Below are positions 5,809 through 11,620 of a stretch of DNA of 64,000 nucleotides, one piece after another. The translations under genes and the position numbers were made by a program. The first letter of the stretch is position 1; each line of letters starts with the position of its first letter. The stretch comes from an uncultured Eubacterium sp. (lineage in GTDB: Bacteria; Bacillota; Clostridia; Oscillospirales; Acutalibacteraceae). The notes below the pieces were generated by a model. It saw only the letters and a program-made list of their open reading frames with translations, did not search any database and had not been told where the DNA came from. The DNA is taken from positions 1 to 64,000 of the forward strand of contig CALWID010000011.1 in the NCBI GenBank assembly GCA_944380635.1. The letters are read 5' to 3'.

Positions 5809-7560
5809 TCAGTTAAGTGAATATTTTTCAAGATACGAATCAAGGTTTTCAACAAATTCTTTATCGCTTTCCTTCAGTTCGCGGGTATACTCGTGCACAT
5901 TATATTCGCCGCTTTCAAGTTCTATCATTGAAACGGCAAGGCTTGAGCAATGGTCCGCGATTCTTTCAAGCGCGTTTATTAGGTCCAGAAACACAAAGCC
6001 CTGGTCAACCGAGCAGGTGCCGTCCTCAATACGCTTTAAATGCCTGTTTTTAAGTTCTTTTTTAAGTTTGTCTATAACCTCTTCAAGCGGCTCTATTTCT
6101 CGCGCTTTTATAATATCGTTCATTTTAAAAGATTCAATGGTGAGATTTATTATCTTTGTAACTGCCGCAAGCATTACGGACAGGTCATATTTTGCTTTAT
6201 CGGAAAAGATAATATTCTTTTTTATAATATTCTTTTTGATTTTTAAAATATCCTCGCAATAATCGGATATTTTTTCCAGGTCTTCTATCGCGTGATGCAG
6301 AATGAAAACATTTTTACTGTCCTCATCAGTTAATTTTAAAGCGCTGACTTTAACAAGATATGTTTCAAGAATTTCCTCGTATTTATCCGTTTCCTTTTCG
6401 TTTTCCGATATTTTGGAGGCTTTGTCATTATTATAATTTTTAATAAGTGAAAATGCCGTTATAGCGGTTTTCTCAACAAGATTCGCCATCTGAACAGTTA
6501 CTTCCCTGCTCTTTTCAACAGCGTAAGACGGAGTAAGCAGGAAGCGCTCGTCCAGCAGAACAGGCGGCTTTTCAGTTCCTTTTTTATCGTCTTTAATAGT
6601 CATATAAGCAAGTTTTTCAAGTTGCTTTGTAAACGGCAGCATAACAAAAGTTGAGAATATATTGAATACGGAATGAATTATTGCTATCTGCGACGGCGTT
6701 ACAGCATTTTGCATAAAATCAAACTTAAATATTGCATTGCTGCCGTAAAACAGAACAACGGCAAGCAGCACGCCGATTATATTAAAATAAAGGTGCGCAA
6801 ACGCGGCGCGTTTCGCGTTTTTATTTGTGCCTATGGACGCGATAAGCGCCGTTACGCAAGTACCTATATTCTGGCCGAGCACAATAGGAAAAGCCGTGCC
6901 GAAAGACACCGTACCAGTAAGCGAAAGCGCCTGAAGTATGCCTACCGACGCGCTTGAAGACTGAATTATCGCGGTAAGTATCATACCGGCAAGAATACCG
7001 AGAACAGGATTGCTGAATTTAAGCAGAATAGAAGTAAACTGCTGATTATCGGCAAGACCGCTCATAGAATCGCTCATAAATTCCATACCTATCATAAGTA
7101 TGCCGAATCCCGCGATTATACCGCCTATATTTTTGCGCTTATCATTTTTTGAAAACATAAGCAGAAATACGCCTATAACGGCAAGAACAGGCGCGAAAGA
7201 AGACGGCTTCAGCAGGTTTACAATTAAACTATCCCCGCTGATACCGGTAAGTGAAAGAATCCACGCCGTTGCTGTTGTGCCTATGTTGGCGCCCATAATA
7301 ACGCCGATGGCGCGCGAAAGTTCCATAATTCCTGAATTAACAAAGCCGACTACCATAACAGTAACCGCCGAGGAAGACTGAATAACCGCCGTAACGGCGC
7401 AGCCGAGCAGAACGCCTTTATATGTTTTATCAGTCATTTTTTCAAGAATCTGCTCAAGTTTACCGCCCGAAACTTTTTCAAGCCCGTCGCCCATCATATT
7501 CATACCGTACAGGAAAAGCGCAAGCCCGCCCAAAAGGGAAAAAACAGAATAGATACTCAT
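5809..7560 (-). CDS. Na+/phosphate cotransporter with PhoU-like tail (NptA/YjbB type)
   Basis: 583 residues. The N-terminal half (about 1-310) is a Na_Pi_cotrans membrane domain with two inverted copies marked by QSSSAVTVMVVGFVNSG and QSSSASVGILQAL, the QSSS signature of this family. The C-terminal part (about 340-560) is helical and charged and corresponds to a PhoU-like domain. It imports phosphate with sodium, and the PhoU part probably tunes uptake or signalling. It is the first gene of the minus-strand operon with the two-component system and diverges from the ABC exporter operon across about 230 bp. Confidence 0.9.
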   Translation of the reverse strand: MSIYSVFSLLGGLALFLYGMNMMGDGLEKVSGGKLEQILEKMTDKTYKGVLLGCAVTAVIQSSSAVTVMVVGFVNSGIMELSRAIGVIMGANIGTTATAWILSLTGISGDSLIVNLLKPSSFAPVLAVIGVFLLMFSKNDKRKNIGGIIAGFGILMIGMEFMSDSMSGLADNQQFTSILLKFSNPVLGILAGMILTAIIQSSSASVGILQALSLTGTVSFGTAFPIVLGQNIGTCVTALIASIGTNKNAKRAAFAHLYFNIIGVLLAVVLFYGSNAIFKFDFMQNAVTPSQIAIIHSVFNIFSTFVMLPFTKQLEKLAYMTIKDDKKGTEKPPVLLDERFLLTPSYAVEKSREVTVQMANLVEKTAITAFSLIKNYNNDKASKISENEKETDKYEEILETYLVKVSALKLTDEDSKNVFILHHAIEDLEKISDYCEDILKIKKNIIKKNIIFSDKAKYDLSVMLAAVTKIINLTIESFKMNDIIKAREIEPLEEVIDKLKKELKNRHLKRIEDGTCSVDQGFVFLDLINALERIADHCSSLAVSMIELESGEYNVHEYTRELKESDKEFVENLDSYLEKYSLN

Positions 7561-7700: not shown

Positions 7701-7729
7701 TTGACATCAAAGTTAATAAATGATATACT
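7701..7729 (+). promoter_or_regulatory. Consensus promoter of the exporter operon
   Basis: TTGACA at 7701-7706 and TATACT at 7724-7729 with an exact 17-bp spacer. The predicted transcript begins about 60 nt before a short leader gene. The intergenic stretch 7561-7700 must also hold the minus-strand promoter for the cotransporter, but I could not pick one confidently. Confidence 0.8.
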
Positions 7730-7795
7730 TTTTATTAACGATTTGTTCATATGTCCCGTTTGGGATAAATTTTAAGGAAAGGAGTGAATATAACG

Positions 7796-7918
7796 ATGAC
7801 AGCAAAAAGAATGATGAGTTACCAAAGATTAAATTATTATACTTATACCTATAAATATGAATATACAAAATTATGCCGGTATAGACATGCGGGCGCGTTA
7901 TATTCGCCCGATTTATAA
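7796..7918 (+). CDS. Tyr-rich 40-residue leader peptide of the ABC exporter operon
   Basis: A short frame with a strong ribosome binding site (AAAGGAGTG, 8-10 bp before the ATG) inside the transcript of the consensus promoter at 7701. It encodes 40 residues, nine of them Tyr, clustered as LNYYTYTYKYEYTK. It ends 83 bp before the exporter start, and a terminator-like hairpin lies between. By position it resembles bmrB, the leader peptide whose stalled translation releases attenuation of the heterodimeric exporter bmrCD in Bacillus subtilis; there is no sequence similarity claim. Alternatively it could be a small secreted or modified peptide exported by the adjacent transporters, though it has no obvious leader/core organisation. 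Translation is supported by the binding site; function is inferred. Confidence 0.6.
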   Translation: MTAKRMMSYQRLNYYTYTYKYEYTKLCRYRHAGALYSPDL

Positions 7919-7950
7919 ACCGTTTTATAAGCGTATATACAATTGTTTTT

Positions 7951-7988
7951 TGCCGACGACTTTTTTGAGCCGCCGGCATTTTATTTTT
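7951..7988 (+). terminator. Attenuator-like hairpin between leader peptide and ABC exporter
   Basis: TGCCG pairs with CGGCA across an inner, mismatched stem and is followed by TTTTATTTTT. The 3' arm (CCGGCAT, 7973-7979) is also exactly complementary to ATGCCGG at 7873-7879, inside the leader frame. A competing anti-terminator pairing is therefore possible and would depend on ribosome position. Confidence 0.6.
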
Positions 7989-8001
7989 CGGAGGTGAAAA
8001 T

Positions 8002-9825
8002 ATGCCGTGGATACCCGTACATGAGGACAAAAAAGTGCCCGTGTTCAAGAATATAATTTACGCCGTGAAAATATTGTTTAAAGCGCACAAACCTTATATA
8101 TTCTGGAACATACTTTCTGAATTTACATATTCAATATTCAGAACATTTATTCAGAGCGTGCTTTTTTTAAAGGTACTGCTTTCCGTAATAGAGGGCGGAT
8201 ATTCATTTTCTTATTATATAAAAATACTTATAATATTTTTCATTGTGGGCGTGCTTGATAAACTGCTTTCTAATATAAGCGATTATAAAAGCCTTGTGGG
8301 TCAAAAAATTGTTTATAAAAAACTTAACAATATGATATTCGATAAGGCGTGTGAGGTTGATATAAACTGCTATGAAAATCCGGAGTTTTATGACAAATAT
8401 CAGCGCGCTACGGAAATACTTACCGGAGGCTATTTTTTCGCGTTTGCGCTTAATCTTGCAAACATAGTAAGTTCGTTTATCGCTTTTTTATCCGTAACAG
8501 GTACTGTTGCAACGATAGACCCTGCGTATCTCGTTTTCCTTATACCTGTACTTCTTGTGTTTGTTGTTGAGGTTATAAAGAGCAAAACCGTTTACAAGCG
8601 TGATTTCAGCATGGCTACAAACAACAGAATAAAAGCCTATGCGCAGAGGACTCTTTTTCTGAAAGATTTTTCTAAGGATATTAGGACTTCTAATATTTTT
8701 GATGTAATTAAAAGCAGATTTGACAAAGCCGTTAAAAGCAATGTTGAAATACTGAAAAAATACGGAATGAAACTATTTCTGTTCAGTATGGCAAGTTCTT
8801 TGCTTGGCGAATTCCTGCCGATAGTGGGCACATATGCCTTTGCCGGCTATCAGTTTGCAGTTACTAACAGCCTTACAATATCCGGCTTTTCGGTGGTTCT
8901 TTCCGCAATAGATTCGGTTAGGCTGGCGGCGCAGTCAATGGCGCGGGGATTTTCGGAATTATCCGCGTCGGCATTTTATTTTCAGAACCTGCGCGATTTT
9001 TTCGAGTATAAACCGGAAGTTGTTTCTGGCAAAAAGCAGGCTGAGGAATTTGAAAGTTTGGAATTTAAAAATGTTTATTTTAAATATCCCAGCGCAAAAA
9101 CATATTCTGTAAGCAACCTGAGTTTAAAAATAGAAAAAGGGCAGACGGCAGCCGTTGTGGGCGTAAACGGCGCAGGCAAAAGCACTTTTGTTAAACTTCT
9201 TATGCGTTTTTATGATGTTACAGACGGCGAAATACTCTATAACGGAATAAATATTAAAGAATATGATTTGGAAAGCCTGCGCTCAAAAATTGCGGCGGTT
9301 TTTCAGGATTACAGAAATTTTGCGCTTACAGTAAACGAGAATGTTATGTGCCGCGAGTGCACGCCGGAGGACAAAATACTTGCGCAGGACGCGCTTAAAA
9401 AGAGCGGCATATACAGCAAAATAGAAACTTTTGACAACGGCGCCGATACGGTTTTGACGCGCGAATTTGATGAAAAAGGCGCCGGGCTTTCAGGCGGCGA
9501 GGCGCAGAAAATGGCTGTTGCAAGGCTGTTTGCAAGGGATTACGATATAGCCGTGCTTGATGAGCCGTCATCAGCGCTTGACCCTATTGCGGAATATAAA
9601 ATGTATGAAAACCTGATTAGGGAAACGAAAAACAAAACGATTATTTATATCTCCCACCGCCTTTCAAGCGCAGTGCTTTCAGATATTATTTTTGTGCTTG
9701 AAAACGGCAGACTTATTGAGAGCGGTAACCATAAGCAACTTATGGCAAAAGGAGAAAAATACGCAAAGATGTTTAAACTTCAGGCGTCCAGTTATCAGAA
9801 GGCGGGTGATGAGATTGATACATAA
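8002..9825 (+). CDS. ABC exporter half-transporter, first subunit
   Basis: 607 residues with six membrane helices (about 30-310) fused to a nucleotide-binding domain (about 345-590). Walker A is VNGAGKST near residue 390, the Q loop lies in VFQDYRNFALTVNENV, the signature is LSGGEAQ (about 495), Walker B is AVLDEPSSALDP with catalytic Glu (about 517), and the H loop is ISHRLSS. A strong GGAGGTG precedes the ATG. The next gene is a second half-transporter that overlaps this one, so the active pump is probably a heterodimer. The leader peptide and attenuator upstream, and the MATE pump downstream, favour drug or peptide export. The substrate is unknown. Confidence 0.9.
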   Translation: MPWIPVHEDKKVPVFKNIIYAVKILFKAHKPYIFWNILSEFTYSIFRTFIQSVLFLKVLLSVIEGGYSFSYYIKILIIFFIVGVLDKLLSNISDYKSLVGQKIVYKKLNNMIFDKACEVDINCYENPEFYDKYQRATEILTGGYFFAFALNLANIVSSFIAFLSVTGTVATIDPAYLVFLIPVLLVFVVEVIKSKTVYKRDFSMATNNRIKAYAQRTLFLKDFSKDIRTSNIFDVIKSRFDKAVKSNVEILKKYGMKLFLFSMASSLLGEFLPIVGTYAFAGYQFAVTNSLTISGFSVVLSAIDSVRLAAQSMARGFSELSASAFYFQNLRDFFEYKPEVVSGKKQAEEFESLEFKNVYFKYPSAKTYSVSNLSLKIEKGQTAAVVGVNGAGKSTFVKLLMRFYDVTDGEILYNGINIKEYDLESLRSKIAAVFQDYRNFALTVNENVMCRECTPEDKILAQDALKKSGIYSKIETFDNGADTVLTREFDEKGAGLSGGEAQKMAVARLFARDYDIAVLDEPSSALDPIAEYKMYENLIRETKNKTIIYISHRLSSAVLSDIIFVLENGRLIESGNHKQLMAKGEKYAKMFKLQASSYQKAGDEIDT

Positions 9826-11620
9826 AAACAAATCTAAAACACACTCTACGCAGTCAAACATTTTTTATTTTATAAAACTTCTTTTTAAAATATCTCCGCT
9901 GCTTGTTATAGGGGAGGCTATGTGGGGAGTGCTGCTTAAACTGCCCACAAGGCTGGTTGCCGTAATAGGCGTAAAATATGTTGCAGACATAGTTACAAAT
10001 AACGGCGACCTTTCAAAAATAGGCGCCGCAATAGCGGGAATTGCCGCGATACTGCTTATCAGCGAAATAATTTGCTGGCTTTTCAGGGAATTTTACTGGA
10101 ACATAGCAAGAGAAAAAGCAAATGCGGGCCTAAGCACGATATTTTACGAAAAGGCAAAATCGCTTGACCTTGAATCTTATGACGACCCGTATTTTTACAA
10201 CAATTTTATTGTTGCCATCGAATCTTCTACGGGGAATTTGAACAACATACTCAGCATGATAAGAGAATATATGGGCGAACTGATTTCGCTTATTACAATA
10301 TGCACCGTAATACTTGCGTTAGACCCCGTATGCCTTTTGATAATACTTGCCATTGTTGTTATATTTACCCCGATAAGCAGAAAAATAGGTGCGCTTCAGT
10401 CCGAAAGGCGTATTGAAAACAACAGGCTGCACAGAAAGTCAGATTACTTTGCGCGCGTTTTTTATCTTCAGGATTACGCAAAAGAAGTAAGGATAAACAA
10501 TATAAGGCCGCTTTTAATAAAAAGATACGGCGAATCGGCGGACGATGTAATAGAAAACCAGCGCAAATATGTAGGCAAGATAGACCTTATTTATTTTTTC
10601 CAGGAAACAGGCGTGCAGGTGCTGGGATTTATGTTTATACTTCCGCTGTATCTGGGATATTGTGTAATTCAGTCCAAAACGCTTTCCGCAGGCGATTTTG
10701 TAGCCACCTTTAACGGCGCTTATTCGGTTGCCACTTCATTTTCATTTCTGACAGTAGCGATTGCGAGAAACTTTTCAGAACAGGCAAAAATGATTGAAAA
10801 ATTCCGCGAGTTTCTAAGCAGGACCAACAACATAAAAGACGGCGGGCACACCGCGGAATGCGGCGAACCGGAAACGATAGAATTTAAGAATGTTTCATTC
10901 ACTTACCCGGGTAACGAAAAGCCGACTCTAAAAAACATAAACATTACCCTGCGCCCGTATGAAAAGATTGCGCTTGTGGGATATAACGGCGCAGGAAAGA
11001 CTACGCTTACCAACCTGCTGCTGCGCCTTTATGACACTACAAAAGGCGAAATACTGATAGGCGGAAAAAACATAAAAGACGAAACGCTTGAAAGCCACCG
11101 CGCAAGGTTTGCGGCAGTATTTCAGGATTTTCAAATATTTGCCGCCACGCTTGGTGAAAATGTTTCGCTAAGCACAAATGTGGATAAAAAAGAGGCTGAA
11201 AAGGCTTTAAAAAACAGCGGATTTACAAAAAAACTGCCTGACGGGATTAACACTGTATTATTAAGGGAGTTTGACGATAACGGAATTATGCTTTCAGGCG
11301 GAGAATCGCAGAAAGTTGCCGTTTCCAGAGCGTTTTACAAAAAATGCCCGTATATTATAATGGACGAACCTTCCGCAAACCTTGACCCGATAGCCGAATA
11401 CAACCTAAACAAATCCATGATTAACGCGGCAAAAAACAAGACAGTTATTTTTATCTCTCACCGTCTTTCAACAACACGGCATGCGGACAGAATATATGTT
11501 ATGGAAAATGGAGAGATAGTTGAAAGCGGAACGCACGAACAACTTATGGCAATGAACGGAAAGTATGCCTATATGTTTAAACTTCAGGCAAAAAAATACA
11601 CAACACAGGCGGCGGAATAA
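9809..11620 (+). CDS. ABC exporter half-transporter, second subunit
   Basis: 603 residues from the ATG at 9809, which overlaps the end of the upstream subunit by 17 bp and follows AAGGCGGG. Longer upstream reading has no binding site and is basic and unlike the family. The membrane domain is followed by an ATPase with Walker A YNGAGKTT (about 392), signature LSGGESQ (about 494), Walker B IIMDEPSANLDP and H loop ISHRLST. Both subunits keep the catalytic Glu and intact signatures, so neither ATP site looks degenerate, unlike many heterodimeric exporters. Translational coupling with the first subunit is implied by the overlap. Confidence 0.88.
   Translation: MRLIHKNKSKTHSTQSNIFYFIKLLFKISPLLVIGEAMWGVLLKLPTRLVAVIGVKYVADIVTNNGDLSKIGAAIAGIAAILLISEIICWLFREFYWNIAREKANAGLSTIFYEKAKSLDLESYDDPYFYNNFIVAIESSTGNLNNILSMIREYMGELISLITICTVILALDPVCLLIILAIVVIFTPISRKIGALQSERRIENNRLHRKSDYFARVFYLQDYAKEVRINNIRPLLIKRYGESADDVIENQRKYVGKIDLIYFFQETGVQVLGFMFILPLYLGYCVIQSKTLSAGDFVATFNGAYSVATSFSFLTVAIARNFSEQAKMIEKFREFLSRTNNIKDGGHTAECGEPETIEFKNVSFTYPGNEKPTLKNINITLRPYEKIALVGYNGAGKTTLTNLLLRLYDTTKGEILIGGKNIKDETLESHRARFAAVFQDFQIFAATLGENVSLSTNVDKKEAEKALKNSGFTKKLPDGINTVLLREFDDNGIMLSGGESQKVAVSRAFYKKCPYIIMDEPSANLDPIAEYNLNKSMINAAKNKTVIFISHRLSTTRHADRIYVMENGEIVESGTHEQLMAMNGKYAYMFKLQAKKYTTQAAE

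What the first reader, a model, noticed from the sequence alone, without database searches (positions are those of the whole stretch)
7701..8001. Leader peptide and attenuator controlling a paired ABC exporter (bmrB-bmrCD-like)
A consensus promoter, a strongly initiated 40-codon Tyr-rich leader, a terminator-like hairpin and then two half-transporters. The 3' arm of the terminator (CCGGCAT) is exactly complementary to ATGCCGG inside the leader frame, giving a possible anti-terminator. The cluster of seven Tyr codons in ten positions upstream of that segment could make ribosomes pause. In B. subtilis, bmrB translation controls bmrCD in this manner in response to ribosome-targeting drugs. The peptide is too short for normal gene callers and may be undescribed.
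Basis: partly seen in the sequence, partly recalled or inferred. Interest (0 to 1): 0.75.

Follow-up and report, generated by a model that had tools for sequence, protein, structure and literature searches.

The report
Self-pairing leader switch before exporter
In front of two transporter genes of an uncultured clostridial bacterium lies a short reading frame whose start site is complementary to its own end, a match kept by paired changes across relatives; it is likely a switch that would turn the transporter on when ribosomes are held up, for instance by antibiotics.

Summary
The leader frame (7796-7918), promoter and a mismatched terminator hairpin (7951-7978) are present. A strong-SD leader plus terminator precedes 41 of 112 distinct orthologous exporters examined. 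For 43 leaders in 20 clusters, 0 of 100,000 re-pairings do as well (z -9); 269 ordinary gene starts show no such effect. Leader pairing with the terminator 5' arm (antiterminator) is also specific across relatives (z -3.5) but weak in this window. The peptides diverge and the Tyr cluster is private, so Tyr- or peptide-specific arrest is unlikely. Best model (inferred): A:B is an anti-antiterminator; a ribosome held at the leader start frees B, the antiterminator forms and the exporter is made. It works like bmrB/vmlR attenuation but fails tested defining features of both. Drug response is untested.

The parts
7701..7729 (+). promoter-like site TTGACA-17-TATACT
   Evidence: 11 of 12 consensus matches; a consensus match only
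7781..7795 (+). segment A: SD (GGAG 7781-7784) and start-proximal region of the leader; 5' strand of the predicted anti-antiterminator
   Evidence: 14 pairs with 7896-7909, one bulged A (7783); -18.9 kcal/mol; mean pairing probability to the leader 3' region 0.90 without ribosome; covariation in relatives
7796..7918 (+). leader ORF, 40 codons + stop
   Evidence: leader ORFs before the same gene in 41 of 112 distinct loci; a one-residue variant protein (R30K) in the public protein set
7873..7879 (+). segment B1 ATGCCGG (within codons 26-28, L-C-R), place of a recurrent [FL]C motif; in relatives the TGCC-type segment pairs with the terminator 5' arm/loop; here complementary to the 3' arm 7973-7979
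   Evidence: (28 of 43 leaders have [FL]C[RPQDS])
7896..7909 (+). segment B2: 3' coding end of the leader, pairs with segment A
7951..7988 (+). intrinsic-terminator-like hairpin 7951-7978 (two mismatches, -10.8 kcal/mol) and U-rich tract TTTTATTTTT
   Evidence: not listed by the simple scan
8002..9825 (+). ABC half-transporter 1 (607 aa)
   Evidence: PF00005 E 2.7e-28; Walker A, LSGG, DE and ISHR motifs
9809..11620 (+). ABC half-transporter 2; its start overlaps the end of the first gene
   Evidence: PF00005 and PF00664 (scanned from 9812); start chosen by eye

Best explanation
This is a leader-ORF region in which the leader's own ribosome-binding site is complementary to the end of its own coding sequence; the ORF is likely translated, and the pairing is predicted to act as an anti-antiterminator that lets an intrinsic terminator shut off the downstream ABC exporter pair unless a ribosome is held near the leader's start. 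Shown by sequence and comparison: the ORF, the A:B complementarity with covariation, and a terminator-like hairpin behind the leader. Predicted: with no ribosome, A pairs with B and the terminator forms (off); a ribosome held on the start region covers A, so B is free to pair with the 5' arm and loop of the terminator as they are transcribed (on); a ribosome that runs to the stop codon covers B and the terminator forms (off). Inferred and untested: that ribosome-targeting antibiotics are the natural trigger and that the exporter handles such compounds. In this window the antiterminator step is the weakest link, because its terminator 5' arm pairs poorly with its leader.
For: A:B pairing: mean own energy -18.2 kcal/mol over 43 leaders; 0 of 100,000 re-pairings among 20 clusters as good, z -9.0; window better than every cross pairing; 269 ordinary gene starts own -10.8 vs cross -10.6. 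Leader + terminator before 41 of 112 distinct loci, A:B not being a criterion for the call. In the 64 kb window 1 of 16 strong-SD short ORFs has A:B <= -15 and a terminator, and it is this one; in 828 kb of related loci 38 of 42 such rows (alternative starts and repeated genomes included) lie before the exporter. B:terminator-5'-arm pairing specific in 32 leaders of 17 groups, z -3.5, mean 1.9 and at most 7 of 2000 re-pairings as good, while the A:terminator controls are null. Masking A raises pairing of the terminator 5' arm/loop with the leader in 20 of 20 clusters, and more with own than with foreign terminators (0.56 vs 0.41, p 7e-5, 20 representatives). In 8 of 32 leaders even the equilibrium fold of the full terminator falls below 50% at some ribosome position. 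Nearest relative L089 (78% identical ABC1) has A:B -25.1 and B:5'-arm -17.5. vmlR works by such a logic (PMC9226507, passages).
Against: In the window itself B:5'-arm is only -7.0 kcal/mol, matched by 74% of cross pairings, and own 0.39 vs cross 0.44. In 24 of 32 leaders the full terminator stays at about 50% or more wherever the ribosome stands, in the window at 79-95%, so antitermination would have to be kinetic. In 10 of 43 leaders (L019, L027, L029, L035, L066, L080, L087, L125, L145, L160) segment A is paired to the leader end with probability 0.13 or less in unconstrained folding. L059 and L066 have A:B no better than half of the cross pairings; 6 of 43 are weaker than -15 kcal/mol, and A:B <= -15 alone is not rare (67 of 213 strong-SD short ORFs, leaders included). 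71 of 112 orthologs lack a leader within the limits used. No consistent protein-level selection on the peptide, so translation is inferred from SD and open frame only. No expression data.
Confidence: 0.68

Rival explanations
1. bmrB-like attenuator exactly: a ribosome pausing at the Tyr cluster frees ATGCCGG, which captures the 3' arm of the terminator.
For: The 7-nt complement exists and sits at the recurrent [FL]C segment; a ribosome at codons 18-22 lowers predicted terminator formation from 95 to 79-93%.
Against: The forced pairing is 2.2-8.0 kcal/mol worse than the terminator; 3'-arm pairing is not specific across relatives (z -1.1); 801 of 5000 codon shuffles have such a 7-mer; only L010 of the other 42 leaders has 4 or more Tyr in ten positions.
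Confidence: 0.12
2. Amino-acid attenuator of the trp type: uncharged Tyr-tRNA stalls the ribosome in the Tyr-rich stretch.
For: Nine Tyr in 40 residues, six within codons 14-23.
Against: The other 42 leaders average 7.6% Tyr against 22.5% here, and only L010 has 4 or more in ten positions; the downstream genes are ABC exporters, not Tyr metabolism.
Confidence: 0.05
3. Macrolide-type arrest at the R-Y-R motif (codons 28-30), as in tlrB (yxjB).
For: RYR is the one R/K-x-R/K motif of the window leader; RYR is needed for tylosin-dependent stalling in tlrB (PMC6851288, passages); the variant P0001 has RYK, which still fits.
Against: 23 of 43 leaders have any R/K-x-R/K, so it is not a shared feature; a ribosome there would cover B1 and lie about 55 nt before the hairpin (geometry, inference).
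Confidence: 0.08
4. The A:B helix only limits translation of the leader (or protects the RNA); the terminator is constitutive and merely sets a low level.
For: Equilibrium folding keeps the terminator at about 50% or more at every ribosome position in 24 of 32 leaders, the window included.
Against: Own-terminator specificity of B:5'-arm pairing across relatives; equilibrium terminator below 50% at some ribosome position in 8 of 32.
Confidence: 0.15

Closest known systems
bmrB-bmrCD attenuator of Bacillus subtilis (PMC4191407; passages seen)
   Same: Translated small ORF before two ABC half-transporter genes; terminator, antiterminator and anti-antiterminator; leader translation needed for induction by a ribosome drug.
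   Different: bmrB carries the three structures inside its coding region (nt 60-162); here the terminator lies after the leader stop and the anti-antiterminator uses the leader's SD. Both ABC subunits here have the Walker B glutamate; that BmrC lacks it is recalled.
vmlR uORF attenuator of Bacillus subtilis (PMC9226507; passages seen)
   Same: Anti-antiterminator at the uORF; a ribosome held there blocks it and lets the antiterminator form; uORF sequence variants still work.
   Different: The vmlR uORF has 3 codons, with its SD in a single-stranded region before the stem; here the leaders have 18-45 codons, the SD itself is paired, and the partner is the leader's own 3' end; the controlled gene is an exporter, not an ABC-F protein.
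toiL-topAI of Escherichia coli (PMC12121999; passages seen)
   Same: A uORF proposed to sense several classes of ribosome drugs through stalling at various sites.
   Different: toiL acts through the topAI ribosome-binding site, with Rho-dependent termination as a consequence; no antiterminator of this kind in the passages seen.
tlrB (yxjB) leader of Bacillus subtilis (PMC6851288; passages seen)
   Same: Leader peptide with an RYR motif before a resistance gene, with an intrinsic terminator.
   Different: No overlapping antiterminator was identified there; [quoted passage not shown]
Predicted 'ABC-leaders' from a terminator survey (PMC2965389; passages seen)
   Same: Premature terminators predicted before ABC transporter genes (205 candidates), one set before a multidrug export operon of two lactobacilli.
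   Different: The passages describe other groups and do not describe an SD:leader-tail pairing.

Membership tests
bmrB-type attenuator | small ORF directly before two ABC half-transporter genes | tested here: met
   among the 41 leader loci a second ABC frame follows in 25 of the 32 with enough sequence (9 cut)
bmrB-type attenuator | terminator lies within the leader coding region | tested here: not met
   leader stop 7916-7918, hairpin 7951-7978; bmrB feature
bmrB-type attenuator | anti-antiterminator inside the 3' part of the leader ORF | tested here: not met
   its 5' strand is the SD/start region 7781-7795
bmrB-type attenuator | induction by lincomycin, erythromycin or chloramphenicol that needs leader translation | not testable with these tools
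   no expression data for this uncultured genome
ribosome-mediated transcription attenuator (general kind) | leader ORF with SD, terminator, and competing antiterminator and anti-antiterminator supported by covariation | tested here: met
   across relatives:
ribosome-mediated transcription attenuator (general kind) | antiterminator pairing with the terminator 5' arm in the window itself | tested here: inconclusive
   -7.0 kcal/mol, no better than cross pairings
ribosome-mediated transcription attenuator (general kind) | translation-dependent read-through | not testable with these tools
   needs an experiment
vmlR-type attenuator | uORF inside the anti-antiterminator stem-loop with its SD single-stranded before it | tested here: not met
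   SD GGAG 7781-7784 lies in the helix 7781-7795/7896-7909 and the AUG just outside it; vmlR feature
amino-acid (Tyr) leader | regulatory codon cluster shared by orthologous leaders | tested here: not met
Rfam-described RNA families (T-box, riboswitches, leaders) | match at gathering score | tested here: not met
   0 matches in the whole window

The most novel reading that the evidence does not exclude
An undescribed class of attenuator in clostridial exporter operons in which the leader's own ribosome-binding site is the first strand of the switch: any ribosome held at the leader's start, whatever the peptide, releases the leader's tail to disarm the terminator, giving a peptide-independent, drug-class-general sensor of ribosome trouble.
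Probability: 0.45. Interest if true: 0.62.

Novelty: new variant of a known kind. Interest (0 to 1): 0.5.

Why it matters
If right, it shows how a group of uncultured clostridia would switch an ABC exporter by ribosome occupancy at a leader's start codon, with a compact design (leader RBS : leader tail : terminator) that needs no conserved arrest peptide. It gives a simple rule, own RBS complementary to own tail plus a following terminator, for finding such sensors where family libraries see nothing, and it is directly testable in a laboratory reporter.

Tried and rejected
Rfam at gathering score: nothing in the window. Pfam and NCBIfam on the leader: nothing. PDB and NCBIfam on the ABC pair: only generic exporter kin in the rows shown (best 60 and best 25), no substrate hint; PADLOC hits match mostly the ATPase part. 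The Tyr-starvation idea was dropped on composition. The 3'-arm antiterminator was modelled and dropped as the main mechanism. Protein-level selection on the leader was sought and not found: over 15 close, partly overlapping pairs pN exceeds pS in 10, pS exceeds pN in 4, one tie; 16 synonymous against 111 nonsynonymous differences, where a codon that changes its residue counts wholly as nonsynonymous. A pattern search for one leader subtype (GGAGGCAGAA...TTCTGCCC) found 0 of 80 genus genomes; it is uninformative, because no locus of that subtype was matched to a genome of this genus. Of the 43 ABC matches in the own genome the loci L003-L008 were scanned and show no such leader; the rest were not. 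Papers: searches (listings seen; two returned nothing) listed no description of this leader; that is no proof of absence from print. A 2016 term-seq survey of such regulators is recalled and was not seen.

Counting choices: chose, where several strong-SD starts passed, the one with the best A:B energy; this favours A:B slightly. L079, L082, L069 and L098 were dropped for too little upstream DNA; the short upstream stretches L118-L151 were not among the 112, but L125 and L145 from them were added. Searches used 32 leaders in 17 groups set by hand, one search used 43 in 20 clusters set by alignment score. The leader limits (SD of 6 or more, 17-60 codons, start within 560 nt) miss weaker leaders, so 41 of 112 may be low. 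mis-oriented the minus-strand loci among L090-L117; one search corrected this.

Full report
What is there. A near-consensus promoter (7701-7729) precedes a 40-codon frame (7796-7918) with a 6-nt SD match, then a hairpin 7951-7978 with TTTTATTTTT behind it, then two overlapping ABC half-transporter genes (8002-9825, 9809-11620). The hairpin is weak (-10.8 kcal/mol, two mismatches). Both subunits carry Walker A, LSGG, a Walker B DE and ISHR. The genome belongs to a group of uncultured clostridia; records of related loci are titled Eubacterium sp., Oscillospiraceae, Ruminococcaceae or Clostridia bacterium, class Clostridia in the nine looked up.

Is the leader real? Orthologs came from a scan of genome contigs (80 loci kept), from the genus (64 of 80 genomes with a match) and from the family (26 of 300). 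Of 112 distinct loci with at least 230 nt upstream, 41 have a strong-SD frame of 18-45 codons followed by an intrinsic terminator before the first ABC gene; a second ABC frame follows in 25 of the 32 that are long enough to tell. On a FastTree tree of 111 ABC1 proteins the leader-bearing loci cluster (16 changes against 33.4 when shuffled, 0 of 500 as low; near-copies contribute), and the window sits in a supported set of four leader-bearing loci (window, L089, L009, L010). A protein search found one near-identical leader (39 of 40 residues; R30K) elsewhere; the changed codon lies between segments B1 and B2.

The pairing that matters. Reading the leaders showed that the SD/start region (A) is complementary to the 3' part of the same leader (B), with different letters in different loci (e.g. 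GGCAAAAA/TTTTTGCC in L038, GGTGAACACA/TGTGTTCACC in L018, 14 contiguous pairs in L088). In the window A is 7781-7795 and B2 7896-7909, 14 pairs, -18.9 kcal/mol. Test: own A:B against A and B taken from different clusters. First set, 32 leaders in 17 groups: 0 of 20,000. Enlarged set, 43 leaders in 20 clusters: 0 of 100,000, z -9.0; 33 of 43 beat at least 90% of cross pairings. Ordinary genes with strong SD at a like geometry show no own-cross difference (269 starts). For the window alone, 0 of 5000 codon-order shuffles and 41 of 5000 synonymous recodings reach the observed energy; 455 of 5000 random places of the window do, so the single case is suggestive and the family is decisive. Against it: L059 and L066 are no better than half of the cross pairings, 6 of 43 are weaker than -15 kcal/mol, and in 10 of 43 segment A is hardly paired to the leader end in free folding.

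The antiterminator. In relatives a TGCC-type segment of B pairs with the 5' arm and loop of the terminator, the strand that is transcribed first (13 pairs in L088). For 32 leaders in 17 groups own pairs are better than re-paired ones (z -3.5, mean 1.9 of 2000 as good), but pairing with the 3' arm is not (z -1.1) and A:terminator controls are null. Folding the RNA up to the end of the terminator loop, masking A with a ribosome raises leader pairing of the 5' arm and loop in 20 of 20 clusters; part of this is trivial, since removing A frees B for any partner, so own and foreign terminators were compared: 0.56 against 0.41, p 7e-5. At equilibrium the full terminator falls below 50% at some ribosome position in 8 of 32 leaders and stays at about 50% or more in the other 24. 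The window is an exception to the 5'-arm pairing: B:5'-arm -7.0, own 0.39 against cross 0.44. It keeps TGCCGG and a CCGCCGGCAT element, but the latter lies in the 3' arm. So in this genome the antiterminator is either weak or differently built.

Mechanism. The arrangement A:B, B:5' arm, 5' arm:3' arm is the 1:2, 2:3, 3:4 logic of attenuators, with the leader's own ribosome-binding site as strand 1. Without a ribosome A:B forms and termination follows; a ribosome held at the start covers A and frees B; a ribosome at the stop covers B. This order is inferred from anatomy. The peptides diverge (pN above pS in 10 of 15 close pairs) while SD, frame and pairing persist, so ribosome position rather than a particular arrest peptide is the likely signal. 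vmlR is regulated by ribosomes held at a 3-codon uORF whose sequence can vary (PMC9226507, passages), and toiL is proposed to sense several drug classes by stalling at several places (PMC12121999, passages). That drugs are the trigger here is an inference from these cases and from the exporter.

Known or new. It is not a bmrB-type member by two tested features (position of terminator, position of the anti-antiterminator), nor vmlR-type (SD paired), but it works like both. No Rfam family matches and the paper searches listed no description. I rate it a new variant of a known kind.

Noticed in passing
L159, L160, L163, L164, L168 and L073-L076, L086 (upstream of ABC1): A second leader type of 18-25 residues with a V-[IAV]-V-S core near its end (e.g. 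PVIVSASC, PVVVSIFCS); the GTGTCC that encodes V-S is the strand that pairs with GGACA-like letters at the SD, so the peptide motif may only echo the RNA pairing.
   Followed up: partly
L073-L076 and L086, between terminator and ABC1: The last leader codons (e.g. CCAATTTCTGCTC in L076) resemble the complement of a segment downstream of the terminator (GAGCAGAAAATTTGG), with differing letters between loci; perhaps a further layer acting near the ABC1 start.
   Followed up: no
L039, L048, L051: The leader lies 354-507 nt before the predicted ABC1 start, much farther than in most loci; what fills the gap was not studied.
   Followed up: no
window 7857-7997: A 46-codon ATG frame overlaps the leader in another frame and ends just before the ABC1 start; not studied, probably chance.
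   Followed up: no
window 5809-7560 (minus strand); L070, L011: A divergent Na/Pi-cotransporter-PhoU gene (Pfam) borders the exporter; by eye similar DNA borders the leaderless relatives L070 and L011, so leader gain or loss may have happened at one syntenic site.
   Followed up: partly
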